42,306 nucleotides of DNA from Streptomyces sp. SPB074. Its GTDB lineage: Bacteria; Actinomycetota; Actinomycetes; Streptomycetales; Streptomycetaceae. Below, piece by piece: positions 8,843 to 28,516 of the stretch. The notes beneath the pieces were generated by a model. That model was not told where the DNA came from. It did not search any database and was given only the letters and a program-made list of their open reading frames with translations. The position numbers were made by a program, and so were the translations under genes. Location of the stretch: contig NZ_GG770539.1 of NCBI RefSeq assembly GCF_000154905.1, positions 6,766,162-6,808,467 of the forward strand, read 5' to 3'. Position 1 is the stretch's first letter. Each line of letters opens with the position of its first letter.

Positions 8843-8848
8843 GGCGCG

Positions 8849-8983: not shown

Positions 8984-9022
8984 TCCAATAGACGGCGGAT
9001 CCGATGATCAAGGAGTCGCCTG

Positions 9023-10321: not shown

Positions 10322-10423
10322 ACCTCAACAACCAAGATCGGGCCTTGACCCTGGAGTTTGAACACGTCTATGCGGCTCGGGCCAGGGTAGTTGAGGTTGG
10401 GTGGACGGTGATCTCGTAGGTGA

Positions 10424-10512
10424 TCGGCGGTATCAGGATCGGCTCAGGCGCAGGGTGGCGAGTGGGGGGGGCGGACCTTCCGGGACGGGCCGTGGTTCGG
10501 GGGCTGTTTCGA
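10424..10512. repeat. 89-bp direct repeat R, copy inside IS3 element B
   Basis: Identical over 89 bp, including a run of eight G, to 11730-11818, which lies outside the element on its right. Inside the IS3 copy it substitutes for 88 bp of OrfB coding sequence. Confidence 0.95.
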
Positions 10513-11265
10513 CCAGCCCTTTCGGCCCTTCAACGTCTCCCTTTTAAAGCTGGCGTTGAACGATTCGGCGGCGGCGTTGTCCGCGCTGGACCCGACGGCG
10601 CTCATGCTCTGCAGGACACCGGCCCGGCGGCAGGCGTCCGCGAAGGCCCCGCTGGTGTACTGGGCTCCGTGATCGGTGTGCATGATCGCCCCGTTCAGAC
10701 TGCCGCGGGTCCGTTCCGCGGCGGCGAGGGCGTCGATGACGAGCTCGGTGCGCATGTGGTCGGCGATCGCCCAGCCTGCCAGGCGGCGCGAGCACAGGTC
10801 GATCACTGTCGCGAGATAGCAGAACCGTCCGCCGCCGACGCTCAAGTAGGTGATGTCACCGACGTACTTGGTGTTGATCTCCTTCGCGGTGAAGTCGCGG
10901 CCGATCAGGTCCGGGGCCTTCGCGGTGGCCGGGTCGGCGATGGTGGTGCGGTGCCGGCGCCGCAGACGGACCCCTTCGAGGCCGATGGTCCGCATGATCC
11001 TGGCAACGCGCTTGTGGTTGACCGCCTGGCCGCCCTCGTCGCGGAGCTCGGCAGTGATCCTCGGGACTCCGTAGGTGCCGTCGGACTCCTTGTGGGCCTT
11101 GCGTATCCGGGCCGCGAGCCGGTCGTCAGCGGCCTGACGGGCCATGCGAGCCGGGGCGGTGCGACGCCAGTAATAGAAACTCGAGCGGGCGATCCCGAGA
11201 ATGTCGCAGAGCCGCTTCACGCCGTATCGGCGCTGGTGATCCTCAACGAACTGGCAGCGGTTCAC
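10428..11265 (-). pseudogene. IS3-family OrfB, C-terminus replaced
   Basis: Identical to OrfB of copy A from the GTG at 11265 through KGRKGWS (residue ~250), including all three DDE residues. The last ~50 residues are then lost: the chain runs into foreign codons (KQPPNHGPSRKVRP...) translated from the copied flank 10424-10512. The true C-terminal coding end (ITYEITVHPT...) survives beyond the patch but out of frame. The catalytic core is complete, but the protein is probably non-functional if the sequence is correct. Confidence 0.85.
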
Positions 11266-12054: not shown

Positions 12055-13875
12055 GTGGCCCTTTCCCCTTCCTCAGGTTCCGCCGGTTCTTCCGGTTCCG
12101 CCGGTGTGCTCCCGCCCACTTACCCGGTCCTGCTCGGTGGTGTGCCTGAGCTGGGTGAGGGCTGGGTGCACTGGCCGAGGAGCAGCGCGATACTGCGGGA
12201 GCCGTACGACGTGCTGGCGCTCAAGGCGCGTCTCGACCATGGTCGCGCCACCCCGGAGGACCAGGCCGACCCGCGGATCGCAGGGAGGGTTGCGCGGTCC
12301 ACCGGGGCGCAGGCGCTCGCGGCGCTGGCGCTGGCTCGTCAGGCGCAGCCCGTCTGGGCGCGGGTCCCGCTGAGTCGGCGGCTGGAATTCGTCCACGCGG
12401 TTCACCGGCTTCTCCGGGAGCGGGCTGAGGAGTTCGTCGGGGTCCTGGTGTCCGAGGGGCAGCCTGTGCGCGTGGCCCACTGGACCCTGTCGGCGGTTCT
12501 GAACCTGACACATCCGGACTCGCTGGACCATGCGCGGTCCGCCCTGGTGTGGGAGGGCTCGCAGGCGGGCCGGCGGATACGGCTGGTGCGCAAGCCGGAC
12601 GGGGTGGTGTGCCTCGACCCGGCGCGTAACGCCCCGGTGGCCACTGCCCTCGCCGGGATTCCCACCCTTGCGGGCGGCAACGCGCTGATCGTCAACGCCC
12701 CGCCGTCGGTTCCGCTCAGCGTCGCCTATCTCTTCCACGAGCTGGTCGATCCGCTGCTGTCGGAGTACGGAGCGCCGCCCGGCACGCTCAGTGTGCTCTG
12801 CGCGCCGGCCCGGCCCATGCTGCGCACGTGGCTCGACTCGCCCGACTGTGACGACATCTTCTTCTTCGGTGGTTCCCGGCAGGGCGCCGAGCTGACCAGG
12901 TCCTGTCTGGAGCACGACAAGAAGCCCATCATGGAGCTCGCCGGAAACGACGCCCTGGTGGTGTGGCGGGACGCCGATCTCCTGTCGGCTGCCGAAGCCG
13001 CGCTGGAGCGGTACCAAGGATCCGGGCAGCTGTGCCTCGCCCCAAAGTTCGCCCTGGTCCACCCGGCGGTGGCCGACGAGTTCACCGCGCTGCTGCGGAG
13101 CCGGGTGACGGCGTTGCGTGTGGGCCCGCCGGAGGACCCCGACGTCGTCCTCACCCCCGTGGTCAAGCGCGCCGAGTGCAAGGACGTGCTCGACGACGCC
13201 GTGTCCAAGGGCGCCGAACTGTTCTGCGGGGGCGAACTCGTCGATGTGGAGGGCAGGCCGACTTCTCGGGGACCGTTCATCACACCAATTCTGCTGCGGG
13301 TACGCGGGCTGCGGAAGGCCGCGACGATGCGGGCGGTGGCCGAGGAGACGTTTTACCCGCTGATGTGCCTCATCGTGCCCGAGAGCGCTTTGGACGCGTC
13401 GCGGCCCGCAGACCCCGGGCACGGAACAACAGGCGGGGGTCCTGCCGGCCCCGGGGATCGGGAGGACGCCGCGCTACTGGACGCCTTCCTCGCGTTCGTC
13501 AACGCCAACCGGTACGGACTGCGCAACTCCTTGTGGGCCCGGGACCCGGCCGTCATCCACAGGTTCACCGGTGAGGTGACCAACGGAGGCGTGCTGAAGG
13601 TCAACGACAGCCACATCGGCACCCTGCCGGTCCTTCCCATCATCGGCGGCACCGGCCTGTCCGGCGGAGTGTTCGGCGAGGCCAACATCCCGCTGCTACG
13701 CACCACCCGGCTCCAGGGCATCAGCATCGGCACCGGCGCCGAGGACCACTTCGATCACCTCGGAGCGGCCGGCCTCCAGCAGCCTTCCCCGCACCCGGAA
13801 GAAGCCACCCCCCTGCCCGGGACACGAAAGCCCGGCGCCACGAAACCCGACAAGGAAAGCAGGCACACCTCATGA
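12055..13875 (+). CDS. Aldehyde dehydrogenase superfamily protein
   Basis: 606 residues from GTG 12055; no strong ribosome binding site is visible and the Ser/Gly-rich first ~18 residues may not be translated. The ALDH fold is shown by GIPTLAGGNALIVNAPPS (cofactor region, ~residue 205), FFFGGSR, the general-base Glu in MELAGND (E294), the catalytic Cys in GSGQLCLAPK (C327) and AEETFYPLMCL. These enzymes use NAD(P) to oxidise aldehydes, or in some cases reduce acyl donors. It is longer than usual (~490) because of N- and C-terminal extensions; the tail (PGTRKPGATKPDKES) is low-complexity. Its stop overlaps the next start in ATGA, so the two are translationally coupled. It may act on an aldehyde made by the neighbouring radical SAM or oxygenase enzymes (inference). 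Confidence 0.85.
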   Translation: MALSPSSGSAGSSGSAGVLPPTYPVLLGGVPELGEGWVHWPRSSAILREPYDVLALKARLDHGRATPEDQADPRIAGRVARSTGAQALAALALARQAQPVWARVPLSRRLEFVHAVHRLLRERAEEFVGVLVSEGQPVRVAHWTLSAVLNLTHPDSLDHARSALVWEGSQAGRRIRLVRKPDGVVCLDPARNAPVATALAGIPTLAGGNALIVNAPPSVPLSVAYLFHELVDPLLSEYGAPPGTLSVLCAPARPMLRTWLDSPDCDDIFFFGGSRQGAELTRSCLEHDKKPIMELAGNDALVVWRDADLLSAAEAALERYQGSGQLCLAPKFALVHPAVADEFTALLRSRVTALRVGPPEDPDVVLTPVVKRAECKDVLDDAVSKGAELFCGGELVDVEGRPTSRGPFITPILLRVRGLRKAATMRAVAEETFYPLMCLIVPESALDASRPADPGHGTTGGGPAGPGDREDAALLDAFLAFVNANRYGLRNSLWARDPAVIHRFTGEVTNGGVLKVNDSHIGTLPVLPIIGGTGLSGGVFGEANIPLLRTTRLQGISIGTGAEDHFDHLGAAGLQQPSPHPEEATPLPGTRKPGATKPDKESRHTS

Positions 13876-14435
13876 CCACGACCTCCGGCACTCCACTGCT
13901 GCACCGCAAGATCGACGTCTGCTTCGGGCATTTCGACACGGACGGCAGCGGCTCGATCGACCGCGAGGACCTGCTCACCCTCGGTTCGCAGCTCCTGGCG
14001 AAGTTCGGTGAGCCCGCCACCTCCCCCAAGGGCACCACCCTGATGGACGGGCTGGCCCGGTTCTGGGACGCCTTGGTGGCCGCCGCCGACGTGGACGGGA
14101 ACCAGCGGATCTCCCCCGAGGAGTACCGCGCCGGTATGACCGGCGCGTTCGTCACCCCGGCCGGGGGCTTCGACACCTCACTGCTCCCCCTGGCCAAGGC
14201 GATTTGCGCGCTGCTCGACACCGACGGCGACGGAGAGGTCAACGAAAGCGAGTTCCAGGCATGGCAGGAGGTGTTCGGCACCGCGCCCGCCGACCGGGCC
14301 ACCGCGTTCCGGAAACTGGACGGGGACGGGGACGGCCGGCTGAGCGCCGACGAACTTCTCGTCGCCATCCGCCAGTACTACGTCAGCCCCGAGTCCGAGG
14401 CGGCGGGCAACTGGCTCTACGGACCGGTGGCCTGA
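13872..14435 (+). CDS. Four-EF-hand calcium-binding protein
   Basis: 187 residues. Four canonical EF-hand loops are visible: residues 22-33 (DTDGSGSIDRED), 73-84 (DVDGNQRISPEE), 116-127 (DTDGDGEVNESE) and 150-161 (DGDGDGRLSADE). All have Asp at position 1, Gly at 6 and an acidic residue at 12, except that the first ends in Asp, so probably all bind Ca2+. The layout matches calerythrin-type bacterial proteins, thought to be cytosolic calcium buffers or sensors. No signal peptide. Coupled to the aldehyde dehydrogenase by ATGA; its role beside biosynthetic enzymes is unknown. Confidence 0.92.
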   Translation: MTTTSGTPLLHRKIDVCFGHFDTDGSGSIDREDLLTLGSQLLAKFGEPATSPKGTTLMDGLARFWDALVAAADVDGNQRISPEEYRAGMTGAFVTPAGGFDTSLLPLAKAICALLDTDGDGEVNESEFQAWQEVFGTAPADRATAFRKLDGDGDGRLSADELLVAIRQYYVSPESEAAGNWLYGPVA

Positions 14436-14696
14436 ACGCCTGACCGCGCGCCGGGCCGAGCCGACCGCAGCCGCGCCGACCCACGCAAGGGGCTTGCGCT
14501 CCCGGCCGGCGGAAGCCGGCGTGCGGACCTCGGAACACCCCGTGCGAGCGGCGCCCGCCTCGCCCTTCGGCTGCTCGCCGACGGCGGCCCCCGCCCGGCT
14601 CTCCGCGCGCACACATGGCCACCTGTGCTGACGGAATGTCCAGGACCGGACATGGTCCGGCGTGATCCCTACACGCACGGCCACCGCCGCGGCCAC
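14436..14696. other. Convergent intergenic region with a possible hairpin
   Basis: Gap of 261 bp between convergent genes. GCCGGC-GGAA-GCCGGC at 14505-14520 can form a short hairpin and may terminate the EF-hand transcript. No believable gene seen. Confidence 0.35.
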
Positions 14697-15314
14697 TCAG
14701 TCGGCGGTATCGGGCTCCTGGCCGCCCGCCCGCTTCGGCTGTGGGGGTCCAGGAGTCAGCATTTCCAGGAGCAGCGCGCTCAATCGCTCGTCCGATACGT
14801 CGGGGAGGTGGTCGAAGGCACCGGAACCACGGGCCAGGACGACGCCGATGAAGGCGGCGGAGATGAGTTCGGCGCGCAGCTCCGGCTGGTCCGCGCCTTC
14901 CGCCGAAAGGCGGCGGCGCAGCGGTTCGACCACACGGCGGTGGAGCTCGGCGCGGGTGGCCAGCTGGCCCGCCGGGTCCTCGTGGGGACGGACGGCGACT
15001 TGGTAGATGGGGTTGGGACCGTGCCGCCGGGTGAGGTCGAGAATGACCGCGATCCGGCCGGGGTGGAGCAGATCGACGATTTCGAGGGAGCCGTCGCCCA
15101 TACGTAGCGTGGCGATGTAGAGCTGCGCCTTGCCACCGAAGTAGCGGGCGATCATCGCCGGGTCGACACCGGCGCGCCTGCCGATGGCCCGCGCGGTGGT
15201 GCGGTCGTAGCCGTGCTCGGCGAACAGTTCGCTCGCGGCCTTCAGCAGCCTGTCGCGGCTGCCTGCGGAGTCCCGTCTCGGCTGGCCCGCTTCAGTCGGG
15301 TTCGTCGCGCTCAT
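14697..15314 (-). CDS. TetR/AcrR-family transcriptional regulator
   Basis: 205 residues from ATG 15314, which overlaps the stop of the upstream MFS gene in ATGA. N-terminal HTH at about residues 18-64: SRDRLLKAASELFAEHGYDRTTARAIGRRAGVDPAMIARYFGGKAQLY, the classic TetR_N pattern. The ligand-binding half ends DVSDERLSALLLEML. Since it is the second gene of an exporter-regulator operon, it most likely represses that operon in response to the exported compound or an intermediate; an imperfect palindrome at 16845-16863 is a candidate operator. Confidence 0.9.
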   Translation of the reverse strand: MSATNPTEAGQPRRDSAGSRDRLLKAASELFAEHGYDRTTARAIGRRAGVDPAMIARYFGGKAQLYIATLRMGDGSLEIVDLLHPGRIAVILDLTRRHGPNPIYQVAVRPHEDPAGQLATRAELHRRVVEPLRRRLSAEGADQPELRAELISAAFIGVVLARGSGAFDHLPDVSDERLSALLLEMLTPGPPQPKRAGGQEPDTAD

Positions 15315-16804
15315 TCCGCAGGCCTTTCGTCGAGTCCGCTCAGTACCGGCCCCGGCTCCAACGACGGCGGTGTGGCCTCCGCCACCGACCCTACGTGTTC
15401 CGGGGACGGGACGGTCGTTATTGTCCGCTTGCCGCCGCGGCGCAGCGGCACGAGCACGGCCACCACAGCGCTGGCGAGCCACACGACGCAGCTGAGCAGT
15501 CCCACGGTGGTGTAGCCGCTGGAAGTGGGGTACGCCGCCCCCGCGTGGGTGTGCCCCTCCAGCACGGCTGCGCTCAACGCGCTGCCGACCGCGTAACCGA
15601 TGTACCGCAGCACCTGGTTGAAGCTCATCGCGCTGCCGGTCTCGTGGGACGGAACCGCGCGGACGAGGAAACCGGGAATCACCGCGAAAATGATCCCGAC
15701 GCCCAGGCCGGCGACGAACATGACCACCACGATCTGCGTCATGTTCTCCCGCCACAAGGTGAACATCGCCATCGCGGCGAGCAGGATCAGGCAGCTCATC
15801 GGAAGCACGGTCCGCGGCGAGGTCCGGCGCACCAGTACCGGGGTGAGCCGGTTGGCCAGGAAGCTGCCCACAGAGAAGGGGGTCAGCGCCAAACCGGCCA
15901 CGACCACCGTCTGCCCCAGCCCGTAGCCCGTCGAGGAGGGCGTCTGCACCAGCCTGGTCACGGTGGACAGCAGCAGGTACATGCCCACGCCTGCCAGGAC
16001 CGCCGCCGCGCTCGCGGTCATCACCGATCTGTCACGCACCAAGCGCAGCGCGACCAGCGGATGAGCGGTTCGCAGTTCCCACACCACCCACACGGTGAAC
16101 AGCAGCAGGGACGCGACGATCATGCCATCGACACGCGGGGAGATCCAGCCCCAGCTCTCGCCTTCGCTGATCGCCACCAGCAGCGACGCGGTGCCAGCGG
16201 TCAGCAGCACCGCTCCGAGGACGTCCAGCGGAGCGGGGGCCCGGTGCCGTGGGGCCGGCACGGCCCACGCCGCGGCGGCCAGGCCCAGTGCGCTGGCCAC
16301 CGCCCCGAGCCAGTAGGCAGCCCGCACGCCTCCCCACTGGGCCACCAGACCGGTGAGCGGATAGCCCAGGCCCACACCTGTCACCGCTGTTATGGAAAGC
16401 AGCGCTATTACCGGCACGGCCCGCCCGATGGGCAGCACGTCCCGGGCCACGGCGATGGTCAGCGGTGTGAGTCCCAGCCCGACGCCCTGAAGCGCACGGC
16501 CCACCAGCAGCGTCGCAAAGCCCAGCGGTAGCGCGGCCAGGACGCAGCCGACGACAACCAGCGCGAGTGCGCCGACGATCACGGTCCTGCGGTGCGGTCC
16601 GTCGCCGAACCTCCCCATCACCGGAGTCGCCACCGCCGCCACCAGTTGTGTGATCGTCAGTGACCACTGCGCGTCGGTCACCGACACGTGGTCCATCGCC
16701 GCGATGGAGGGGATCAGTGGGGCTCCGAGGCTGCCGATCACCGCCGTGACCAGGCAGATGAATGTCAAGCAGGGCACCAGCGCCCGCAGCCGTGCCGGCT
16801 CCAT
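15311..16804 (-). CDS. MFS drug/proton antiporter, probably 14 membrane helices (DHA2 type)
   Basis: 497 residues. ATG 16804 was chosen over GTG 16816 because GAGGAG lies 5 bp upstream of it. MFS motif A appears as GRFGDGPHRRTVIVG after helix 2, and motif C-like glycine-rich sequence as GVGLGLTPLTIAVARD and SITAVTGVGLGYPLTGLVA. Length and the spread of hydrophobic segments suit a 14-helix transporter. It probably exports the product of the neighbouring pathway or gives self-resistance. It is divergent from the oxygenase operon and forms an operon with the TetR gene. Confidence 0.9.
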   Translation of the reverse strand: MEPARLRALVPCLTFICLVTAVIGSLGAPLIPSIAAMDHVSVTDAQWSLTITQLVAAVATPVMGRFGDGPHRRTVIVGALALVVVGCVLAALPLGFATLLVGRALQGVGLGLTPLTIAVARDVLPIGRAVPVIALLSITAVTGVGLGYPLTGLVAQWGGVRAAYWLGAVASALGLAAAAWAVPAPRHRAPAPLDVLGAVLLTAGTASLLVAISEGESWGWISPRVDGMIVASLLLFTVWVVWELRTAHPLVALRLVRDRSVMTASAAAVLAGVGMYLLLSTVTRLVQTPSSTGYGLGQTVVVAGLALTPFSVGSFLANRLTPVLVRRTSPRTVLPMSCLILLAAMAMFTLWRENMTQIVVVMFVAGLGVGIIFAVIPGFLVRAVPSHETGSAMSFNQVLRYIGYAVGSALSAAVLEGHTHAGAAYPTSSGYTTVGLLSCVVWLASAVVAVLVPLRRGGKRTITTVPSPEHVGSVAEATPPSLEPGPVLSGLDERPAE

Positions 16805-16844
16805 CTCGCTCCTCACTTGGCGGCCCGAAGGATCACCACCCGAC

Positions 16845-16863
16845 GTCTACATGCGATGTCTAC
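16845..16863. promoter_or_regulatory. Imperfect palindrome, candidate TetR operator
   Basis: GTCTACATGCGATGTCTAC: arms of 8 bp with 6 matches around a GCG centre, 41 bp upstream of the MFS start and between divergent transcription units. Size and position suit a TetR-family site. Confidence 0.4.
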
Positions 16864-16972
16864 GCTTGATGATAATCCCTCCTCGCGCGTCCGTCGTAGG
16901 AACGCCTCAGCATCGAGGGAGCGGATCATCGCGGCGTCCCGCGCGCCCGCGAGATCCAGGTGGGCGGTGTGA
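16856..16972 (+). other. Short ORF resembling the start of a TetR-type protein
   Basis: 38 codons from ATG 16856: contains RRRNASASRERIIAASRA, similar to the first helix of TetR regulators, then ends at a TGA. It could be a remnant of a divergently placed regulator or mere chance; it does not resemble a modified-peptide precursor (no Cys, Arg-rich). Confidence 0.2.
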
Positions 16973-17093
16973 GGGTCCGAAACGACGGTCACACAGCCTT
17001 GGGCACGGCCCGCTGCACGTCACGGGAGCGACCGGTCAGGGCGGGCACCTCGGGCGTGGTTTTGTTCGCGCCGGAGCCCATCAGAATCTCCCC

Positions 17094-17729
17094 GTGTGCT
17101 CAGCGCGGCCGGATGCGAAGCCGGTCGCCGATGACGGAGGCTCCGGGGCGCGGTTCGTTCTCGTGGTACCAGGCTTGCGTCGGAACCCGGACCGGCTCGC
17201 CACCCGGCCGGTGACACCGCAGGAGTGGCAGGCCGCGGCCCCGCAGGAGCGGGCCGCCGTCCGTGACGTGGCGCGGGACATCCCGGCACTGTTCGACGAG
17301 GGCTCGGCCTACCCGGCCAAGCACCGTGCCCGGCTCTCGGACTTCTTCGTCTTCGCCGGCATGGGCCCGGCCCTACGCGATCTGCTGAAGAGGTGGACGG
17401 CCCCGGGGCGGCCGCTGACCACCAACGTCGAGTTCGCGCGCTACCGGCGCGGCGACACGCTCGGCGAGCACTCCGACGCCGAGTCGGACACCTTGTTCGT
17501 CCTCAACTTGTACCTGGACCCGGGCTACCGAGAGGGCGACGGTGGTGTCCTCGGCTTCCGGGACGAGGAGGGCCGTGAGCATCTGATGCCGCCCCGATTC
17601 AACAGCGTTTCCGTGATGCCGATCCGGCCGGGCTGCGTGCACTGGGTCACCTCCTGGCGGGCCGACCACGCCGGTCGCCACACGGTCAGCATTGCCGTCG
17701 TTCCCGCGTCCGCCGGTGAGGTGAAGTGA
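17094..17729 (+). CDS. 2-oxoglutarate/Fe(II)-dependent oxygenase (SM-20/PHD type), first copy
   Basis: The frame is open from before 16650, so the start is uncertain; GTG 17094 gives 211 residues and GTG 17163 is also possible. Domain features: HSD (H126, D128) and H183 (GCVHWV) as the iron-binding facial triad and R195 for the 2-oxoglutarate carboxylate, followed by HTVSIAV. It is a paralogue of the product at 19785-20543: shared DIxALxDEG, FFVFxxxxxALRDxL, NxYLD, FNSVSxMPIRxxCxHWV. The N-terminal ~95 residues of that paralogue have no equivalent here, so this gene is either N-terminally short or frameshifted upstream. One base separates its stop from the radical SAM start. It probably hydroxylates or desaturates a substrate of the pathway. 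Confidence 0.8.
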   Translation: MCSARPDAKPVADDGGSGARFVLVVPGLRRNPDRLATRPVTPQEWQAAAPQERAAVRDVARDIPALFDEGSAYPAKHRARLSDFFVFAGMGPALRDLLKRWTAPGRPLTTNVEFARYRRGDTLGEHSDAESDTLFVLNLYLDPGYREGDGGVLGFRDEEGREHLMPPRFNSVSVMPIRPGCVHWVTSWRADHAGRHTVSIAVVPASAGEVK

Positions 17730-17730
17730 C

Positions 17731-19701
17731 ATGCCGTGCAGCAACGAGAGCGGCCCTGCAGAGCCCGTGGCGGCCCGCGGCGACGGCTGCGTCGTCCTCG
17801 CCTTCCCCCCGCTCGTCGAGTCCAGCTTTGGCCGCTACTTCCCGTCGACGACCGTCCTCGCCGGTTTTCTACACAGCCGGGGGGTCCGCACCCACCAGTG
17901 GGACCTCAACGAGGAGTTCGCCCTGCACCTGCTCGACTCCGGCCACCTGACGGAGGCGGGCGCGGGCCGACTCGTCGGCCTGGACGGCTGCCATCCCGAA
18001 GAGATGAGCGCCGTGGCGGGCCGTTGGCTCGCCCGCCGTCGCGACGCCCTCTTCGACGAGGACGGCCGGCATACCTTCGCCGCCGAGTCCGGTCCGGCGT
18101 TCCTGCTGTCGGCGCTGGCGCAGCCGTACCTAATCGACCCAGAGGCCGAGTGGCTGACCGACGCGGCACTGATGCGCTCGGAGCGGACGCTGATCTATCG
18201 CGCGTACTACGCCTCGCTCGACCTGGCCTCTCGGCTTCCCGCGGAGGCCCGGCCGCTGGGGATCTCCGTCCCTATGGGACCGCAGCTCGTGCCCGCGCTC
18301 CTGCTCGCCGAGGCCGTCAAACGCATCCGGCCTGACGTGCGGACGGTGCTCGGCGGTCCGACGTTGTCCCTGATGAACGAGTCCGACCTGGCCCGTCTGC
18401 TGGAGGTCCACCATCAGGTCGACGCGGTCGTGCGCTTCGACGGTGAGGCGCCCCTGCTCGCCCTGTACCAGCAGGCCGCCGCGGGCGAGTGGCGGCCGAC
18501 CGAGGTCAGGGGGGTGTCCGCCATGGCCGACGGGGAGACCGTCCACGCCTTGCCTGCACCCGGGCTGCATCCCAATACGCTGCCGCCTGCCGCGTACGAC
18601 CCCGCGCTGATGGCCCGGCTGGTCGGTCACGAGATGGGCATCGTGCAGGCGCGCGGCTGCTACTGGGGCAAGTGCGACTACTGCGACTTCGTCGAGCTGT
18701 ACGACGGGTCCCCGCCCTACAGGGGACGTTCCGTGCAGAGCTTCATGGCCGAGCTGGAGCACCAAGTGAGGACGCACGATGTGCGCCATTTCGAGCTGAT
18801 CACCGAGTCGATCCCGCCCGCGTTTGCCCGCCGGTTCTCCCAGGCGGTTCTCGACCGCGGGATGGACATCACGTGGAACTCGTTCGCCATGGTGGACCGA
18901 CGTTTCGACGCCGAGCTGCTTCAGCTAATGGTCCGGGCCGGCTGCGAGTACCTGATCATCGGCATGGAGACGACGAACTCCCGGGTGCTGAAACTGGTGC
19001 ACAAGTCCGCGGACCGCCAGGAGAACCTGCGATTCATCCGCGAGGCCCACCGGGCCGGCATGAAGCTGCGGATCAACCTGATCCCCGATCTGCCCTCCAC
19101 CACGCTGGAGGAGGCCATGGAGTCCCTTCGAGACGTGGCCGAACTCGCCGACTGCGTCGAGTCGTTCACAGTCTTCCCGTTCGAGGCGACCCGCTCCTCC
19201 GAGGTGGGCCGCCACCCCGAGCGATTCGGCCTGGTCGTCCGGGACGGCGGCAGCGTGCTCGCCAACCAGGCGCAGTACGCGCTCAACCACCTCGGCAACA
19301 TCGACCCGGCGATGACCCGTGAGGAACGCATCGGTGTCCACCGCGCCTTCAAGGACTTCGCGATCGGTCACGGCTCCGCGCACATGCGCCGCACCGGCGA
19401 CGAGTTCCTCGACCGGCTGCCCGGCGAAGACGAGGCGTTCCGGCTGGCCGTTGCATCGCTGGACGTCCTCCCCCGCGGCGACGAGTTGGTCGTCACACAC
19501 ATCCTGCGCCGTGAGCGCACGGTCCTGCCCGCCGTCGTGGCCCGAGGCCTCGGCCCCTGGCTGGACGGGACGCCGCTGACCCGCCGCGAGCTGACGGACG
19601 TCTACGGCCCGGCCGGCGGGGCTGCGGTCCTGCGGCAGCTGGTCGGGGCCCAGATGCTGACCGCCGCCACCGCCGGGCGTCCGGAGCCGGCCCTGGCCTG
19701 A
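17731..19701 (+). CDS. B12-binding-domain radical SAM enzyme
   Basis: 656 residues. The N-terminal part (~20-290) has the layout of a B12-binding Rossmann domain (VVLAFPPLVESSFG, GISVPMGPQLVPALLLAEAVKR, VLGGPT, VVRFDGEAPLLAL). The radical SAM core starts with ARGCYWGKCDYCDF, cluster cysteines C310, C315 and C318, a CX4CX2C spacing rather than CX3CX2C. Then come FELITESIPP, YLIIGMETTNSRVL and LRINLIPDLPSTT, matching the glycyl/SAM-contact strands. A ~150-residue C-terminal extension follows. Cobalamin-dependent radical SAM enzymes often methylate unactivated carbons or rearrange rings, some on RiPP precursors. It lies between two 2OG oxygenase genes in a tight operon. Confidence 0.88.
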   Translation: MPCSNESGPAEPVAARGDGCVVLAFPPLVESSFGRYFPSTTVLAGFLHSRGVRTHQWDLNEEFALHLLDSGHLTEAGAGRLVGLDGCHPEEMSAVAGRWLARRRDALFDEDGRHTFAAESGPAFLLSALAQPYLIDPEAEWLTDAALMRSERTLIYRAYYASLDLASRLPAEARPLGISVPMGPQLVPALLLAEAVKRIRPDVRTVLGGPTLSLMNESDLARLLEVHHQVDAVVRFDGEAPLLALYQQAAAGEWRPTEVRGVSAMADGETVHALPAPGLHPNTLPPAAYDPALMARLVGHEMGIVQARGCYWGKCDYCDFVELYDGSPPYRGRSVQSFMAELEHQVRTHDVRHFELITESIPPAFARRFSQAVLDRGMDITWNSFAMVDRRFDAELLQLMVRAGCEYLIIGMETTNSRVLKLVHKSADRQENLRFIREAHRAGMKLRINLIPDLPSTTLEEAMESLRDVAELADCVESFTVFPFEATRSSEVGRHPERFGLVVRDGGSVLANQAQYALNHLGNIDPAMTREERIGVHRAFKDFAIGHGSAHMRRTGDEFLDRLPGEDEAFRLAVASLDVLPRGDELVVTHILRRERTVLPAVVARGLGPWLDGTPLTRRELTDVYGPAGGAAVLRQLVGAQMLTAATAGRPEPALA

Positions 19702-19784
19702 CCCCGCCGGCCCACCCCGCCGGCCGTTCGCCGCCGCGCCGCGCACCGACCCCCGCCCCGTCCACTCCCTTCGTGAGGAGAACC

Positions 19785-20543
19785 ATGTCCAGCACCACGA
19801 CACCGCCGCCGTCGCCAGTTCCGCCGGCCCTGACCGGCGCCGCTCCCTACGTCGCGCCGCAGTACCTGACCGAGTCCACGGTCGAGATGCTGCGCGACTG
19901 GTACCACGGGGGACCGGTCCGCCCGCTGCAGCTGCGGGATTTCCTGCGCCCCGAGTTCGCCACGGATCTGGCCGCCGCGATGCGCGCCATCCCCACGTGG
20001 TCGCGGCACGCCGCCAAGTACGAGGGGCGCCTGGGCAAGACCGAGTACTGGGACGATGCCGTCGACGAACAGGACGAGGTCACCATCGCCCAGTTCGTTG
20101 TCAAGGACATCCACGCCCTGCTTGACGAGGGCGCCATGGACGCCGCGCATCAGCGCACGCTTCAGGAGTTCTTCGTCTTCTCCGTGCTCTCCGACGCCCT
20201 GCGCGACTGGATCTCCTCCGGCACGGACCTCGTCCTGCGCAAGCACACCACCATGGAGCTGGCCGCGTACCGCCGCTCCGACGCTCTGGGAGCCCACCAG
20301 GACCTGGTGCCTGGCCGGGTCCTCGCGGTCAACTTCTACCTCGACGAGGTGTACACCCCGCAGGCCGGCGGACGACTCGCCTTCCGCAACGGCGAGGACA
20401 CGGAGTTCTTCGTCGAACCCCTCTTCAACAGCGTCTCGCTGATGCCCATCCGGGAGGACTGCTGGCACTGGGTCGAGCCGTTCACCCGGGACGACGTCGG
20501 CCGCTACACCATCGCCATGGGCCAGCACCTGGAGGGGAGCTGA
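19785..20543 (+). CDS. 2-oxoglutarate/Fe(II)-dependent oxygenase (SM-20/PHD type), second copy
   Basis: 252 residues from ATG 19785, with GTGAGGAG 4 bp upstream deciding the start. Iron ligands H171 and D173 (GAHQDL) and H228 (CWHWVEP), with R240 (GRYTIAMG) for 2-oxoglutarate; the jelly-roll strands VLAVNFYLDEVY, GGRLAFRNG and FNSVSLMPIRE are clear. The first ~30 residues are Pro/Thr-rich. Residues 45-140 (LQLRDFLRPEFATDL...AIPTWSRH) carry the usual helical N-terminal part. Such enzymes hydroxylate aliphatic carbons, including Pro, Asp or Asn side chains in peptides. It overlaps the next gene by 4 bp if that gene starts at CTG 20540. Confidence 0.88.
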   Translation: MSSTTTPPPSPVPPALTGAAPYVAPQYLTESTVEMLRDWYHGGPVRPLQLRDFLRPEFATDLAAAMRAIPTWSRHAAKYEGRLGKTEYWDDAVDEQDEVTIAQFVVKDIHALLDEGAMDAAHQRTLQEFFVFSVLSDALRDWISSGTDLVLRKHTTMELAAYRRSDALGAHQDLVPGRVLAVNFYLDEVYTPQAGGRLAFRNGEDTEFFVEPLFNSVSLMPIREDCWHWVEPFTRDDVGRYTIAMGQHLEGS

Positions 20544-21571
20544 ACACCGTCCGCCTGCTACCCGCCGTCGCCGTCCACGAGAGCGCGGACGAGACGCTGC
20601 TGACCCTCGGCCACCGGCTGCTGCGCATCGGCGGAGCCCGGCCGGGCCTCGGCGAGGCGCTGACGCGGCTGCGGGAGGGCACCACGCGGGAGGCACTCGG
20701 GACACTGTGGCGCCCCGGCGCGGCGACCGCGCTCCTCACCGAACTCACCGAGCTGGGCTGGATCACGGCCGAACCGGCGGCAGCGGCACAGGACTTCACC
20801 GGCGAGTCGTACGAACGGCAGGTGGACTACCTCGGCCTGTTCACCCCGGACACCGGCACGGCGCAGCAGCGGCTGCTCACCGCCCGGATCGGGGTGATCG
20901 GCCTCGGCGGCATCGGTTGCATCGTCGCCCAGCATCTCGCGGCGGCCGGCGTGGGTCTGTTCTGGCTCGTCGACGACGACCGCGTGGCCGTGCACAACCT
21001 CAACCGGCAGTTCACGTACACCCGTTCTGACCTGGGGCGGCCCAAGACCGAGGCGCTGGCCGGCTACCTGCAGGCGGTGCGGGCCGGTGCAGTGAGCGTC
21101 GGCGTGCGGAGGCGGGTCACGACCGTGGGCGACCTCGCCGCGTCCCTGCCCCACGACCTGGATCTGGTGGTGGCGGCGGCCGACACGCCGCCCGGGCTGC
21201 CCGCCGTGGTCGCGGACTGGGCAGCCCTCACCGGCACCCCGACAGCGTTCGGCGCGGTCGGCGTTGGCGTGGGCCTGTGGGGCCCGGTGGTCGACCCGGC
21301 CCGGGGCGGCTGCTGGAGCTGTTTCGAACGCGCCCGGCGCGCCCGGCTCACCGACCGCGAACGGGAGATCGAGGACCACTCCGCCGAACCCGCCCCCTTC
21401 TCCTTCGGTCCCGCCAATACAGTGGTCGCGGCCATGCTCGCGCACGACATCGTCGAGTACCTGTGCAGCGGAACATGCCCGACGCTGGGGCGGCGGGCGG
21501 CCTTGGACTTCACCCGACAGCAGATCACCCACGGCGAAGAGAGCACGTGCACGTGTCCGACGACCTCATGA
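20540..21571 (+). CDS. ThiF/E1-like adenylating enzyme with an RRE-like N-terminal domain
   Basis: The E1 core is clear: GVIGLGGIG (121-126 in this numbering) for ATP, DDDRVAVHNLNRQF, LGRPKTEA and a distal FGPANTVVAAMLAHDIVEYL. CWSC near residue 257 and CTC near the C-terminus suggest a zinc site. The first ATG/GTG in frame is GTG 20822, but 94 in-frame codons before it encode VRLLPAVAVHESADETLLTLG...GEALTRLREGTTREAL...LLTELTELGWI, a winged-helix pattern like PqqD/RRE domains fused to RiPP ThiF proteins. I therefore place the start at CTG 20540, directly after GGAGGGGAG. Family role: AMP activation of a carboxylate, as in MccB or the ThiF partners of YcaO. Its stop overlaps the MFS start (ATGA). 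Confidence 0.8.
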   Translation: MNTVRLLPAVAVHESADETLLTLGHRLLRIGGARPGLGEALTRLREGTTREALGTLWRPGAATALLTELTELGWITAEPAAAAQDFTGESYERQVDYLGLFTPDTGTAQQRLLTARIGVIGLGGIGCIVAQHLAAAGVGLFWLVDDDRVAVHNLNRQFTYTRSDLGRPKTEALAGYLQAVRAGAVSVGVRRRVTTVGDLAASLPHDLDLVVAAADTPPGLPAVVADWAALTGTPTAFGAVGVGVGLWGPVVDPARGGCWSCFERARRARLTDREREIEDHSAEPAPFSFGPANTVVAAMLAHDIVEYLCSGTCPTLGRRAALDFTRQQITHGEESTCTCPTTS

Positions 21572-23097
21572 GCGATCGACAACAGGTATCAGACCAGCAG
21601 ACGGTCGCACCACCGGAGTTGGGGAAGCAGCTCCAGGAGAAGGACCCGGGGCGCAAGCCGAAGAAGGCCCCGTTCCGCGGGACCGGCTTCCTGCGGTTGT
21701 GGACCGGCGAGACCCTGTCCCTCGCCGGCACAGAGATCACCTTCATGGCGATTGGCATCACCGCCGTGACCACTCTCGCGGCCACTCCATGGCAGATGGG
21801 CGTGCTGGAGGCCGCCGAATCCGCCGCAGTCCTGCTGCTCGGGCTGTCGGCGGGTGTCTGGGCGGACCGGTACGAGCGGCGTGCCCTCATGCTGGTGTCC
21901 AACGTGGCGCGGGGGCTGCTGCTCTTCACGATCCCGCTGCTGTTCTGGCTTGACGCGCTCACCATGCCGGTCCTGTACGGGGTCGTGTTCCTCGTCGGCG
22001 CCTTCACCCTGCTCTTCGACAGCGCCACGTCGGCCTACCTGCCCCGGCTGCTGCCGCGCGGGCAACTGGAGCGCGCCAACTCGTGGATGGAGGCCAGCAC
22101 CTCCGTCGGCACCGTCGCCGGGCCGGGTCTGGCCGGTCTGCTCATCCAGGTCATGAGCGCACCCGTCGCCCTGGCCGTGGACTGCTTCTCCTACCTGGTC
22201 AGCTGCTTCACACTGGCCGGCCTGCCCAAGGCCGCGCCGTCCGGCGGCCCCCCTAACGAGGAGGCCACGACGGACGGCGGATCCGGGGCGGACACCAGCG
22301 GCACTCCCGGCGAGGGGAAAGCCGAAGACGAAGGCGCCGGAGCGCGGAAGAAGCGAGAGTCGCATCGCAAGGCCGTGCTCAAGGGTCTGCGGGTGCTGCG
22401 CGACGACCGCATCCAGCGTCCGATGATCCTCGCCGCCACCCACTTCAACATCTTCCACGCGATGTTCTTCGCGGTTCACACCCTCTTCGTGCTCCGCGTC
22501 CTCGGCTTCAGCCCGGGCCTGCTCGGCGCCACCAGCATGGCGGGCGGTGTAGCCGGTCTGCTCGGCGCGTCCTGCACCCCCTTCCTGACCCGGCTGCTCG
22601 GCCAGGGCCGGGCCCTGGTGGCGGCCTACGCGGCCCCCGGCTTCTCGGCGGTGCTGGTCCCGCTCACCCAGCAGTGGGACAACCGCCCGCTGGCCATCGC
22701 CTTGGTGTCGGCGTCCACGTTCACTTGGACGTTCGCGGTCGTGGTCAACCTGGTCATCAGCGAGACCGTGAAGCAGAGCCTGGTCCCCAACCACCTGCTC
22801 GGCCGGGTCACCGCCACCACCCGCTTCGTCAGCTGGGGCTGCCAGCCGGTGGGTGCGCTGCTCGGCGGCTGGTTCGGCGGGCACTTCGGGTTGGCCGAGG
22901 TCATGTACGTGTCGGCGGCCGGTCTCCTCACATCGGCGCTGTGGCCGCTCCTCAGCCCGGTCCGCGCCCTGCGGGGCCCCGAGGACGAGGTGGATAGCCG
23001 GAACGAGACGGACGTCTCGCCGGGCGCGGCGCTCCCCGTCGGCGACGTACCCCTGCCGCAGTCCGCGCCGCCCACCGAGCCGCCCACCGAGCCCTAG
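21568..23097 (+). CDS. MFS exporter, 12-helix type
   Basis: 509 residues from ATG 21568 (ATGA overlap with the E1-like gene); GTG 21553 is an alternative. The charged N-terminal tail (QLQEKDPGRKPKKAPF) precedes RLWTGETLSLAGTEITFMAI, the usual first helix of MFS_3/enterobactin-exporter-like proteins. Motif A reads GVWADRYERRALML. A long hydrophilic loop (~residues 225-275, Gly/Glu/Asp-rich) splits two six-helix halves, and the second half carries LLGRVTATTRFVSWGCQPVGALLGG. It most likely exports the mature product. The C-terminus is a Pro-rich tail (PPTEPPTEP). Confidence 0.88.
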   Translation: MSDRQQVSDQQTVAPPELGKQLQEKDPGRKPKKAPFRGTGFLRLWTGETLSLAGTEITFMAIGITAVTTLAATPWQMGVLEAAESAAVLLLGLSAGVWADRYERRALMLVSNVARGLLLFTIPLLFWLDALTMPVLYGVVFLVGAFTLLFDSATSAYLPRLLPRGQLERANSWMEASTSVGTVAGPGLAGLLIQVMSAPVALAVDCFSYLVSCFTLAGLPKAAPSGGPPNEEATTDGGSGADTSGTPGEGKAEDEGAGARKKRESHRKAVLKGLRVLRDDRIQRPMILAATHFNIFHAMFFAVHTLFVLRVLGFSPGLLGATSMAGGVAGLLGASCTPFLTRLLGQGRALVAAYAAPGFSAVLVPLTQQWDNRPLAIALVSASTFTWTFAVVVNLVISETVKQSLVPNHLLGRVTATTRFVSWGCQPVGALLGGWFGGHFGLAEVMYVSAAGLLTSALWPLLSPVRALRGPEDEVDSRNETDVSPGAALPVGDVPLPQSAPPTEPPTEP

Positions 23098-23104
23098 GAG
23101 CACC

Positions 23105-24445
23105 GTGCCCGTCCTCAGCCCCGTCCGTCACACCCTCTCCAACGGTCTGCGGGTGGTCGTCTCCCAGGATCCCACCGTGCCGGTGGCCGCGGTCTGCCTC
23201 GGGTACACGGTGGGTTCCTGTGACGAACCGCACAGCCGGACCGGGCTTGCGCACCTGGTCGAACACCTAATGTTCCAGGGCTCGACGCAGGTGCCCGCCG
23301 GCAGGCACACCGCGGCGATCGAGGACGCCGGGGGGTACACCAACGCCGCCACCGGTTTCGAGCGCACCACCTTCCACAGCATCGTCCCGGTCGGTCAGCT
23401 CGAGCTCGTCCTGTGGCTGGAGGCCGACCGCATGGGGGGCCTGCTGGACGCGCTGACCGCCGAGAGCCTGGCCACCCAGCGGGATGTGGTGCTGAACGAG
23501 CGCCGCGAACGGTACGACAACGTGCCCTACGGCACAGGCTGGGAACAGTTGGTCGCCATGTCCTTCCCGGCCGGACACCCCTTCCGCGCGATGCCAGCCG
23601 GCAGCCCCGAAGACCTGCGGGCGGTGACTCTCGACGACTGCCGCTCCTTCTTCAGCCGCCACTACACGCCGGACGGAGCGATCCTCTCCGTGGTCGGCGA
23701 CGTCCGGCCCGAAACGGTCTTCGACGTGGCCGAACGGCACTTCGGGCACATCCCGCCGTCCGGCGCGGCAGCCAGCCCAGCGGCGCGCTGCGTCGCGCCG
23801 CTCACGCCCACGGGGCCGAACGAGTCGCGGCGGCACGTGGTGGAACCCGTGCCGGGTCCCGCTTTCATGGCCACGTACCAGCTCCCCCCGTACGGCGAAC
23901 CCGGGTGCGCGGCCGCCGACCTGGCCGTGACGCTGCTTGGCGGCATGAGCAGCCGCGGGCTGCACGACCGGCTGGTGCGCCGCGGCCGGCGCGCCCACAC
24001 GGCTCGCGCGTCGCTGACGCCCCTGCGCCGGGCGCCGTCTCTCGGCCAGCTCAATGTGCGGGCCCCGGCCGGGGTCGCGCTCGCCGACGTGGAGCGTGCG
24101 GTGGATGAGGAGATCGAGTATCTCGCCGGTGGCGGGGCCACCGAGGCCGCCCTGGCGGGGGCCCGGGCGCAAATCCGCCGGGACTGGTATGACCGGCTCG
24201 CCCACCCGGCCAGCCGCGCCGACGAACTGTGCGCGCAGGAGGCGTACTTCGGCGACGCCACCCGCTGCGACCGGCACCTGGCGAGCGTCCTCGACGTCCA
24301 GGCGTCGGACGTCAGTGCGGCGGCCGACGAACTGCTCACCCCGGCGCGCCGCGCGGTCCTCACCTACGAGCCTGGGCCCGCGCGGAGCCCGTTCGCGCAG
24401 GCCACGCCGGCACAGGCCCGCCCGGCCCTCTCCCCGACGTCGTAA
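23105..24445 (+). CDS. M16-family zinc metallopeptidase, catalytic subunit
   Basis: 446 residues from GTG 23105, with AGGAG 4 bp upstream. The inverted zinc motif HxxEH is H50-L-V-E53-H54 (LAHLVEHLMFQGS), and the third ligand is E132 (VLNERRERYDN), 78 residues on, as expected for M16. GGYTNAATGFERTTFHSIVP matches the strand lining the active site. The second half (PGPAFMATYQLPPYG...LLGGMSSRGLHDRLVR) is the inactive M16_C domain. No signal peptide, so cytosolic. In RiPP pathways M16 enzymes (such as the Alb and Pqq types) cut leaders or mature peptides. It pairs with the next gene. Confidence 0.92.
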   Translation: MPVLSPVRHTLSNGLRVVVSQDPTVPVAAVCLGYTVGSCDEPHSRTGLAHLVEHLMFQGSTQVPAGRHTAAIEDAGGYTNAATGFERTTFHSIVPVGQLELVLWLEADRMGGLLDALTAESLATQRDVVLNERRERYDNVPYGTGWEQLVAMSFPAGHPFRAMPAGSPEDLRAVTLDDCRSFFSRHYTPDGAILSVVGDVRPETVFDVAERHFGHIPPSGAAASPAARCVAPLTPTGPNESRRHVVEPVPGPAFMATYQLPPYGEPGCAAADLAVTLLGGMSSRGLHDRLVRRGRRAHTARASLTPLRRAPSLGQLNVRAPAGVALADVERAVDEEIEYLAGGGATEAALAGARAQIRRDWYDRLAHPASRADELCAQEAYFGDATRCDRHLASVLDVQASDVSAAADELLTPARRAVLTYEPGPARSPFAQATPAQARPALSPTS

Positions 24446-24486
24446 CCGATCGTGCCGCCCGCCGGTCTTTCGCGAAGGGTTTCCGC

Positions 24487-25890
24487 ATGACTGCACCCGT
24501 CTCCGCTTCCTCTCTCCACCCGGCCGCCGTGGGCCGGCGGGCCGCCAGGCCGCGGCCGCAGCGGCCCGTGCCGGTTCCCGTCAAGCCGTGGCTCTTCCCC
24601 GCACTGCGCGAAGAGGTACTGGCCAACGGCGTGACCCTGCTGACCTGCGACCGTCCCGGTCAGGAGGTGCTGAGCGTCGAGATCGTCGTGGCCGCGCCGC
24701 TCGTCCTGGAACCCCGTGACGTGGAGGGTGTCCTCGGCATCACCACCAGCGCCCTCGTCGAAGGCGTACCGGGGCTGAGTTCGCTCGACTTCATCCGGGA
24801 GCTGGAGAACTACGGTGCGACCCTGGGAGTGGGCGCAGAGCACGCGGGGCTGCGCATCACTTTGGACGTTCCGGGCACCCATCTGGTCCACGCCCTGGCG
24901 CTGCTGGTCCGTGCCATGCGTGAACCACTGCTGTCGGCCACTGCGGTGGACCGGCTGGTCCGCGCGCGCATCCATGCCCTGGTCCGTCATGAGGCGGAGC
25001 CGGAGCGCCGGGCCGCGCTGGAACTGCACGCCGCTGTGTTCGACTCCGCCGACCGGCGCAGTCGTCCCGCGCGCGGCACGCAGGAGACAGTCCGCAACAT
25101 CGACCGGGACGCGGTCGTCGCCTGCCACCGGAGCTTCCTGCGTCCCGCCGTCACCACCGTGGTGGTCGCGGGCGATCTGTCGGGGAACGGCGTCGAGGCG
25201 GCGCTGCACCGCGTGCTGTCTTCGTGGGAAGGGGAAAGCGGCACGCTGCAGGCGCCGCCCTCGCCACCCGCGCGGGACAAACCGGCAGTAATCGTGGTCG
25301 ACCGGCCCGGGGCCGTGCAGACGCGGCTGGTCCTCGGCCGGGCCGCCACCGCGCGCACGGCGCCGGGCTGGGATGCGCTGCTCATCGGCAATCACAGTCT
25401 CGGCGGCTCCGTCAACGCCCGCCTCGACCGGGAACTGCGGGAGGCCAAGGGCTACACCTACGGCTTCCACAGCCGGCTGCTCGCGGTGGTGCAGCATTCG
25501 CTCGCAGTGGTGACCGGCGCGGTGGAAACATCGGTGACGGGCGACGCGCTCGGCGACGTCCGGCGCATCTTGCAAGACGTCGCCGAGCGTGGGATCGACG
25601 AGCGGGAGCGGTCGGCGGCGGTGGCGCAGATCGTGGACGCGGCGCCGCTGCGCTACCTCACGGCCGCCACCGTCGCGGACGAGATCGCCGTGCTGGTGCT
25701 CGACGGGCGCGCCCCCGCGACGCTGCCGGGCGCGTTCCGGCGGGCGGCGGCCGTCACCGTCGAGGAGGCGTCGGCGGCGCTGCGGGAGGCGTTCGCACCG
25801 GACCGCCTGGTGACAGTGGCGGTCGGCGACGCCTCGCGAATCGCCGAGGCCATCGCAGAGGTGACGTCCTCGCCGGTCCATAGGGTCTGA
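24487..25890 (+). CDS. M16-family peptidase-like partner without the zinc motif
   Basis: 467 residues from ATG 24487, with GAAGGG about 10 bp upstream. It has the M16 two-domain fold (LANGVTLLTCDRP...VEIVVAAPLVLEPRDVEGV; second domain TRLVLGRAATART..GWDALLIGNHSLGGSVNARLDRELRE) but no HxxEH; the equivalent region reads GVLGITTSALVEG. The AKGYTYGFHSR segment (~residues 318-328) is the R/Y substrate-tail motif that non-catalytic M16 subunits contribute in heterodimers. A basic Arg/Pro-rich stretch precedes the fold (residues 15-35). It is the last gene of the operon. Confidence 0.9.
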   Translation: MTAPVSASSLHPAAVGRRAARPRPQRPVPVPVKPWLFPALREEVLANGVTLLTCDRPGQEVLSVEIVVAAPLVLEPRDVEGVLGITTSALVEGVPGLSSLDFIRELENYGATLGVGAEHAGLRITLDVPGTHLVHALALLVRAMREPLLSATAVDRLVRARIHALVRHEAEPERRAALELHAAVFDSADRRSRPARGTQETVRNIDRDAVVACHRSFLRPAVTTVVVAGDLSGNGVEAALHRVLSSWEGESGTLQAPPSPPARDKPAVIVVDRPGAVQTRLVLGRAATARTAPGWDALLIGNHSLGGSVNARLDRELREAKGYTYGFHSRLLAVVQHSLAVVTGAVETSVTGDALGDVRRILQDVAERGIDERERSAAVAQIVDAAPLRYLTAATVADEIAVLVLDGRAPATLPGAFRRAAAVTVEEASAALREAFAPDRLVTVAVGDASRIAEAIAEVTSSPVHRV

Positions 25891-28018: not shown

Positions 28019-28019
28019 G

Positions 28020-28469
<450 letters not shown>

Positions 28470-28481
28470 CCCACCACCCAC

Positions 28482-28513
28482 GAAGGCCCCGGGGGAGCAC
28501 CCCCGGGGCCTTC
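28482..28513. terminator. Strong bidirectional hairpin terminator
   Basis: GAAGGCCCCGGGGG - AGCA - CCCCCGGGGCCTTC: a perfect 14-bp stem between the convergent katG fragment and DUF4232 remnant. Confidence 0.9.
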
Positions 28514-28516
28514 GCC

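What the first reader, a model, noticed from the sequence alone, without database searches (positions are those of the whole stretch)
12055..25890. Compact RiPP-like locus combining B12 radical SAM, two 2OG oxygenases, an E1-like enzyme and an M16 pair
Seen: six tightly packed genes on one strand (17094-25890) plus a coupled ALDH and EF-hand pair and an exporter-regulator pair. Known: radical SAM, ThiF/E1-like and M16 proteins recur in RiPP maturation, and 2OG oxygenases tailor peptides. Inference: this is a peptide-modifying pathway. I do not know a described class with exactly this enzyme set, and no YcaO, lanthipeptide synthetase, NRPS or PKS gene is present.
Basis: partly seen in the sequence, partly recalled or inferred. 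Interest (0 to 1): 0.82.

Follow-up and report, generated by a model that had tools for sequence, protein, structure and literature searches.

The report
Truncated gene cluster for modified peptides
The genes look like what remains of a bacterial pathway that cuts and chemically remodels the tail of a small ribosome-made peptide, possibly into an antibiotic; related bacteria carry the peptide gene that is missing here, and the literature we could search did not describe this kind of pathway.

Summary
The operon is 17182-25890: a 2OG-oxygenase remnant, B12 radical SAM, 2OG oxygenase, E1-like enzyme, MFS exporter, M16 pair. The ALDH/EF-hand and TetR/MFS genes have no orthologue in 12 related loci. 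Ten of 12 related loci, nine in the window's genus, keep radical SAM, E1, MFS and an SBP_bac_5-like gene; each has one short ORF with a shared ending (F-x3-5-L-[N/G]-[E/D]-x-L ... R-[S/C/T]-stop), a candidate precursor family. The window lacks it: homology starts abruptly at 17182, so precursor, SBP gene, ABC-F gene and 68 residues of the first oxygenase are absent, and searches of the genome found no precursor. Sub-types with V, H or N before the terminal Arg carry different tailoring genes. Seven of ten loci hold an ABC-F gene, hinting at a ribosome target. Product and chemistry are untested; eight searches of open-licence papers found no description.

The parts
17181..17182 (.). Junction: left limit of similarity to related loci
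   Evidence: blastn against L013 starts at window 17182; 16791-17181 matches none of 12 related loci; of 199 genomes searched with 15800-17300, 23 others matched and none of their matches passes window 16790
17182..17729 (+). OG1, 2OG-Fe(II)/prolyl-4-hydroxylase-like oxygenase remnant, N-terminus (68 residues in L009, L014, L017) missing; HxD and later His kept
   Evidence: Pfam 2OG-FeII_Oxy_3 6.6e-05, below cut-off; alignment with relatives; HSD motif
17731..19701 (+). B12-binding radical SAM enzyme; three Cys at 310, 315, 318 invariant in 14 of 14 rows (spacing C-x4-C-x2-C)
   Evidence: (nearest NCBIfam TIGR03975, 85 bits, below its cut-off of 281.85)
19785..20543 (+). OG2, 2OG-Fe(II) oxygenase with HQD motif (ATG 19785 or GTG 19773)
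   Evidence: Pfam 3.3e-07, above cut-off
20540..21571 (+). E1/ThiF-like adenylating enzyme, MccB-like, probable CTG start overlapping the OG2 stop
20540..20764 (+). N-terminal RRE-like domain of the E1 (four strands then three helices in the model)
   Evidence: AlphaFold2 model, block pLDDT 81-91 for residues 1-80; MccB alignments start at model residue 2
21568..23097 (+). MFS2, major facilitator exporter
   Evidence: Pfam MFS_1 2.9e-31; orthologue in 10 of 12 related loci
23105..24445 (+). M16a, catalytic M16 peptidase subunit (HLVEH)
24487..25890 (+). M16b, non-catalytic M16 subunit (no HxxEH)

Best explanation
A RiPP pathway of an apparently undescribed class, present here as a left-truncated copy. 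In intact relatives a precursor of about 37-53 residues is made. Its conserved segment (F-x3-5-L-[N/G]-[E/D]-x-L) would act as the leader, bound by the RRE-like N-terminal domain of an MccB-type E1 enzyme; the last few residues, always ending x-Arg-[Ser/Cys/Thr/Ala], would be the core. The enzymes common to all sub-types, B12 radical SAM and E1, should act on the common part: radical SAM methylation or another radical change near the Arg, and E1 adenylation of a carboxylate (C-terminus or the conserved Asp/Glu) captured by a nucleophile, for instance the terminal Ser/Cys/Thr. In the window's sub-type two 2OG oxygenases would hydroxylate or desaturate the Val-Arg-Ser core, the M16 catalytic/non-catalytic pair would remove the leader, and the MFS protein would export the product. 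The cytosolic-looking SBP_bac_5-like protein may hold precursor or product, and the ABC-F protein may protect the ribosome. Shown here: gene content, linkage, precursor conservation, E1 fold, truncation. Inferred: every reaction, the leader/core border, the target, and that the window copy no longer makes the product.
For: Ten of 12 related loci keep rSAM, E1 and MFS2 and the SBP gene; each of the ten has exactly one stop-terminated frame matching the precursor motif, out of 7143 frames in 13 loci, against 0.2 expected from shuffled tails (the regex was written after seeing the ORFs, so the control is partly circular). Type A precursors show pN/pS 0.22 in the last 24 codons. An ATG with a purine-rich stretch upstream is present in all 11 precursors, by eye. 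E1: profile nearest MccB (1.5e-39; ThiF 2.4e-25, PaaA 1.4e-22), model pLDDT 85, MccB Z 30.2, rmsd 3.0, 312 aligned, from residue 2. Adenylation-site residues invariant in 11 rows. M16a HLVEH, M16b none. Truncation. No precursor in the window's genome; SBP gene only a weak generic hit. Expression, M16 and ThiF precedents in RiPPs: passages of PMC12150305 and PMC10885120.
Against: No chemistry is tested. The window itself has no precursor, so the pathway reading rests on relatives. Two of 12 related loci (L021, L022) have the radical SAM without E1, MFS2 or precursor motif in the DNA held. Genes left in the window show dN/dS 0.20-0.32 against L013, no looser than L009 against L013 in five of six genes, so they do not look like old pseudogenes; this averages over the whole divergence and says little about time since truncation. 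The assembly has 2 contigs and is rated 93.57% complete, so a missing piece cannot be excluded. The ABC-F (L009) scores 268.7 bits, below the 380 cut-off of the ribosome-protection model, and the window's genome has a 64% identical ABC-F elsewhere, so it may be an ordinary paralogue. The E1 CTG start is inferred.
Confidence: 0.78

Rival explanations
1. The window copy is still active: the precursor and the other missing genes lie elsewhere in the strain, in unassembled DNA or in a form that my searches missed, and the left junction is an assembly fault or a rearrangement.
For: Retained genes show dN/dS 0.20-0.32 against L013; genome rated 93.57% complete.
Against: Protein search of the genome found only E 0.26 and 0.85 matches inside longer frames; a degenerate DNA pattern with up to 3 mismatches found none; the SBP search gave only E 0.001 over 107 residues. 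The first oxygenase has lost its N-terminus and native start in any case.
Confidence: 0.13
2. The short peptide is a carrier scaffold: a small amino-acid-like product is built or modified at its C-terminal x-Arg-Ser/Cys and released (as in pearlins), so the product is a modified one- to three-residue molecule.
For: The variable part is tiny and the last two residues are nearly fixed. M16 proteins include PqqF-like ones (TIGR02110, 59 bits, below cut-off 320).
Against: No PEARL-type amino-acid ligase was identified among the proteins scanned; the leader/core border is unknown. It overlaps the best explanation and differs only in the size of the product.
Confidence: 0.3
3. Microcin-C-like Trojan horse: the E1 joins a nucleotide to the peptide C-terminus, and the product is imported and processed in target cells.
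For: E1 is closest to MccB by profile and fold; an MFS exporter follows, as MccC is an MFS exporter (family recalled; exporter role in PMC7136475 passage).
Against: MccA is the heptapeptide MRTGNAN, modified on its C-terminal Asn (passage); none of the 11 precursors here ends in Asn, all are far longer, and the radical SAM and ABC-F have no place in that scheme.
Confidence: 0.1
4. The short ORF is a regulatory leader (a stalling peptide that senses a ribosome-targeting antibiotic), not the substrate, and the enzymes modify something else.
For: It sits just upstream of another gene, and an ABC-F gene lies near it in 7 of 10 loci; stalling leaders of ABC-F genes are known (recalled).
Against: It precedes the SBP gene, not the ABC-F gene, which is divergent in six loci and downstream in L019; an E1 with an RRE-like domain needs a peptide substrate, and no other conserved small ORF was found in the four type A loci compared.
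Confidence: 0.06

Closest known systems
Microcin C pathway (MccB, MccC)
   Same: E1 with N-terminal peptide-binding domain, full-length fold match Z 30.2; exporter in the cluster
   Different: No C-terminal Asn, no heptapeptide; radical SAM, 2OG oxygenases, M16 pair, SBP-like and ABC-F genes in addition
Pantocin A pathway (PaaA)
   Same: E1-like enzyme; profile 1.4e-22, fold Z 26.2 over 272 residues
   Different: Weaker match than MccB; no Glu-Glu-Asn in the 11 precursors listed (core sequence recalled)
ThiF-like RiPP pathways Grc and Ind of streptococci
   Same: ThiF-like enzyme with RRE; radical SAM in Grc, M16 protease in Ind (passages of PMC12150305)
   Different: Neither combines ThiF with both; the B12 radical SAM, 2OG oxygenases and the R-[S/C/T] precursor ending are not in the passages seen
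TIGR03975 RiPP maturation radical SAM C-methyltransferases; ApyD
   Same: Nearest named radical SAM models (85 and 70 bits)
   Different: Far below cut-offs (281.85 and 750); Cys spacing C-x4-C-x2-C
M16 heterodimers of lanthipeptide pathways (PttP1/PttP2)
   Same: Heteromeric M16 protease for leader removal (passage of PMC10885120)
   Different: No lanthipeptide synthetase found among proteins scanned

Membership tests
RiPP (superclass) | Genetically encoded precursor peptide next to modifying enzymes | tested here: met
   In 10 of 12 related loci; not met in the window itself
RiPP (superclass) | Peptide-binding (RRE-like) domain on a modifying enzyme | tested here: met
   By predicted structure and MccB match only; no RRE-specific model was run
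RiPP (superclass) | Precursor shown to be modified | not testable with these tools
   Needs expression and mass spectrometry
Microcin C family | MccB-type E1 | tested here: met
   (20% identity)
Microcin C family | Precursor ending in Asn | tested here: not met
   0 of 11 precursors
Pantocin family | Glu-Glu-Asn core in the precursor (recalled) | tested here: not met
   absent from the 11 C-terminal stretches printed
TOMM/azole peptides, bottromycin | YcaO enzyme | tested here: inconclusive
   none among the window proteins scanned; not every ORF or locus was scanned
TIGR03975 radical SAM | Score above the curated cut-off | tested here: not met
   85 bits against 281.85
Ribosome-protection ABC-F (NF000355), in relatives | Score above the curated cut-off | tested here: not met
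   L009: 268.7 against 380, E 1.1e-79; ABC-F superfamily yes

The most novel reading that the evidence does not exclude
A new RiPP class of very small ribosome-targeting antibiotics: an MccB-type E1 and a B12 radical SAM enzyme with unusual Cys spacing jointly remodel a fixed C-terminal x-Arg-Ser/Cys/Thr of the precursor, interchangeable tailoring sets (two 2OG oxygenases with an M16 pair; one 2OG oxygenase with an unknown 480-residue protein; carbamoyltransferase with a GDSL protein) follow the residue before the Arg, and an ABC-F protein protects the producer.
Probability: 0.35. Interest if true: 0.82.

Novelty: new variant of a known kind. Interest (0 to 1): 0.62.

Why it matters
It gives a handle (precursor motif plus E1/radical SAM pair) on a RiPP group that I could not find described, with three natural sub-types that allow the roles of tailoring enzymes to be read from the core residue, and a possible ribosome target suggested by the linked ABC-F gene. 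Caveat: a published survey (PMC12150305, passages seen) collected 27,400 RRE-ThiF fusions, and this family may sit among its uncharacterised groups.

Tried and rejected
Rejected: ALDH/EF-hand and TetR/MFS1 as pathway genes (no orthologue in relatives). Considered as hidden precursors in the window: short ORFs of 16813-17214 on both strands; none matches the motif and their region matches no relative. Plasmid carriage: no tblastn match of the radical SAM at 1e-30 in the plasmid collection. Wider spread of the radical SAM: own family sample 4 others of 393 (E 1e-40), genus sample 7 others of 391 (E 1e-80), phylum sample 0 others of 395, class sample 0 others of 393 (E 1e-60); the samples overlap, the sets are drawn evenly from larger groups, and only three first-look candidates per genome were scored. 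By position and contig length the extra genus hits appear to be loci already held. The genome-contig scan used patterns from a single sequence, so distant relatives may be missed.

Led nowhere: the 480-residue protein of the HRS loci has no Pfam, NCBIfam (L015 copy) or PDB match, and its model is useless (pLDDT 35); an ATP-grasp guess by eye stays untested. The MFS2 rows of the dN/dS script are a frame error of mine and are not used. Gene calls of relatives are a rough GC-frame heuristic. In the radical SAM tree the three HRS loci are not one clade (32% of bootstrap trees), though in the E1 tree they are (84/86); so the link between core residue and tailoring genes rests on about three lineages, not on ten independent cases. 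L019 (NRS) has an oxygenase-like gene (29% to OG1) beyond its ABC-F gene, a partial exception to 'no oxygenase with N'. L016b (YRA ending) was found by eye and does not fit the regex. Literature: eight searches of the open-licence PMC library; subscription papers are not held. Of papers I saw only listings and passages, none in full.
Full report
What is in the window. Gene calling and Pfam/NCBIfam scans give, on the + strand, a 2OG oxygenase-like ORF ending at 17729, a B12-binding radical SAM protein (17731-19701), a 2OG oxygenase (to 20543), a ThiF/E1-like protein (to 21571), an MFS exporter (to 23097) and two M16 proteins (to 24445 and 25890). Junctions are tight: 1, 71, -4, -4, 7 and 41 bases. 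M16a has HLVEH; M16b has no HxxEH, as in catalytic/non-catalytic M16 pairs. Both oxygenase ORFs keep an HxD motif.

The E1 is longer than it looked. The frame is open upstream of the first ATG/GTG/TTG and conserved in relatives. In the five type A loci (window, L013, L009, L014, L017) the oxygenase stop lies in GGAGGG[G/A]AGCTGA, so that a CTG overlapping the TGA is the likely E1 start (inferred). A profile of nine E1s finds MccB first among solved structures (1.5e-39), ahead of ThiF (2.4e-25) and PaaA (1.4e-22). The AlphaFold2 model (pLDDT 85, nine sequences) has four strands and three helices in its first 72 residues, and aligns with MccB from residue 2 at Z 30.2, rmsd 3.0, 312 residues, 20% identity; MoeB and ThiF (27.1, 26.8) align from residue 85 only, PaaA (26.2) from residue 2 (Foldseek agrees). 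I call the N-terminal part RRE-like from this; no RRE-specific model was run.

Relatives. A family-level genome sample (4 others of 393) and one scan of 84,980 species genomes (10 loci) gave 12 distinct related loci: L009, L012 and L013-L022 (two of the four genomes are the same contigs as L013 and L018 by length). Rows: 10 of 12 encode radical SAM, E1 and MFS2 together and an SBP_bac_5-like protein; L021 (Acidobacteria MAG) and L022 (Amycolatopsis) encode only the radical SAM of this set in the DNA held. Nine of the ten belong to the window's genus (L009 and L012 by the tool's kinship label, seven by Streptomyces record titles); L019 is an uncultured Corynebacteriales MAG. None has the window's ALDH, EF-hand or MFS1 gene; TetR gave one 52-residue hit in L009.

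The precursor family. Comparing ORFs across L009, L013, L014 and L017 showed a short ORF conserved before the SBP gene. Looking at the same place in the other loci gave matching short ORFs. A regex of the shared ending (F-x3-5-L-[NGD]-[EDN]-x-[LI]-x2-7-stop) matches 10 of 7143 stop-terminated frames in 13 loci: one in each of the ten loci, none in the window, L021 or L022; shuffled tails give 4 in 142,860, or 0.2 per scan. The regex was written after seeing the ORFs, so the position and one-per-locus pattern weigh more than the number. An eleventh, divergent precursor (ending HNYRA) precedes a second radical SAM gene in L016. Eleven of 11 have Arg next to last; the last residue is Ser in seven, Cys in two, Thr in one, Ala in one. 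Type A endings show 33.7 synonymous differences over 110 sites against 21.3 non-synonymous over 322, pN/pS 0.22.

Three sub-types. Type A (V-R-S/T: L009, L013, L014, L017): two oxygenases and M16 genes (M16b not seen in L014, whose contig ends there). Type B (H-R-S: L012, L015, L020): one oxygenase and a 480-residue protein of unknown family. Type C (N-R-C/S: L016, L018, L019): carbamoyltransferase and GDSL-like genes between E1 and MFS2. The window's radical SAM and E1 fall in type A with full support, next to L013. Type B is not one clade in the radical SAM tree. L019 has a distant oxygenase-like gene. An ABC-F gene is within the held DNA of 7 of 10 loci (divergent in six, downstream in L019); its L009 member is nearest to ribosome-protection models but below their cut-off.

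The window copy is cut. Similarity to L013 begins at 17182 and not before (no earlier match). OG1 of L009, L014 and L017 has 68 residues before that point (from the tblastn and ORF coordinates). The precursor, SBP and ABC-F genes that stand there in type A relatives are absent; a TetR/MFS pair stands there instead. A protein search of the whole genome for the precursor gave only E 0.26 and 0.85 matches inside longer frames; a DNA pattern gave none; the SBP search gave one weak generic hit; an ABC-F of 64% identity lies 6 Mb away. Both flanks of the window are rich in transposase genes, which could have caused the loss; no transposase abuts the junction. The remaining genes have dN/dS 0.20-0.32 against L013 (six genes; MFS2 not measured), so the loss may be recent or the genes may still serve; I cannot tell.

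How it most likely works. Marked as inference throughout: the RRE-like domain of the E1 binds the conserved F...LN[E/D]xL stretch; the E1 adenylates a carboxylate of the precursor; the B12 radical SAM changes a residue of the common ending; oxygenases or carbamoyltransferase tailor the sub-type-specific part; M16 proteins (type A) remove the leader; MFS2 exports. ThiF-like enzymes with RREs are known to make thiolactone, indolylamide and N-P linkages (passages of PMC12150305), heteromeric M16 proteases remove leaders in lanthipeptide pathways (passage of PMC10885120), and MccB modifies a C-terminal Asn (passage of PMC7136475), which no precursor here has.

Novelty. Eight full-text searches of the open-licence PMC library returned no paper that describes this gene set; the ThiF review and the RRE papers were seen as passages only. 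Subscription literature and cluster databases were not searched. I file it as a new variant of a known kind: a RiPP pathway, closest in its E1 to microcin C but not a member.

Noticed in passing
17731-19701 and 13 related sequences: Radical SAM cysteines are spaced C-x4-C-x2-C (C310, C315, C318), invariant in 14 of 14 rows; the usual spacing is C-x3-C-x2-C (recalled).
   Followed up: no
20530-20545; L013, L009, L014, L017: The E1 gene in five of five type A loci seems to start at CTG inside the oxygenase stop (CTGA) behind a strong Shine-Dalgarno-like sequence.
   Followed up: partly
L016 9456-11950: A second, divergent precursor and a second radical SAM gene stand head to head with the main operon.
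   Followed up: partly
L015 14334-15776; L020 14690-16120; L012 4925-6229: A conserved protein of about 480 residues without any Pfam or PDB match follows the exporter in the HRS loci.
   Followed up: partly
L021 5513-7483; L022 9719-11614: The radical SAM family also occurs without E1, MFS2 or the precursor motif in the DNA held, in an Acidobacteria MAG and an Amycolatopsis.
   Followed up: no
3434-11265 and 26951-31643: Dense transposase genes on both sides of the operon (DDE_Tnp_4, rve integrase cores, Mutator, IS4/5-like, DDE_5).
   Followed up: partly
33832-35316: Replic_Relax (replication-relaxation) protein, suggesting a plasmid-like or integrative element to the right.
   Followed up: no
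12055-14435: ALDH gene overlapping by four bases an EF-hand gene; the EF-hand protein resembles XopAW-family models below the cut-off (64 against 120 bits).
   Followed up: no
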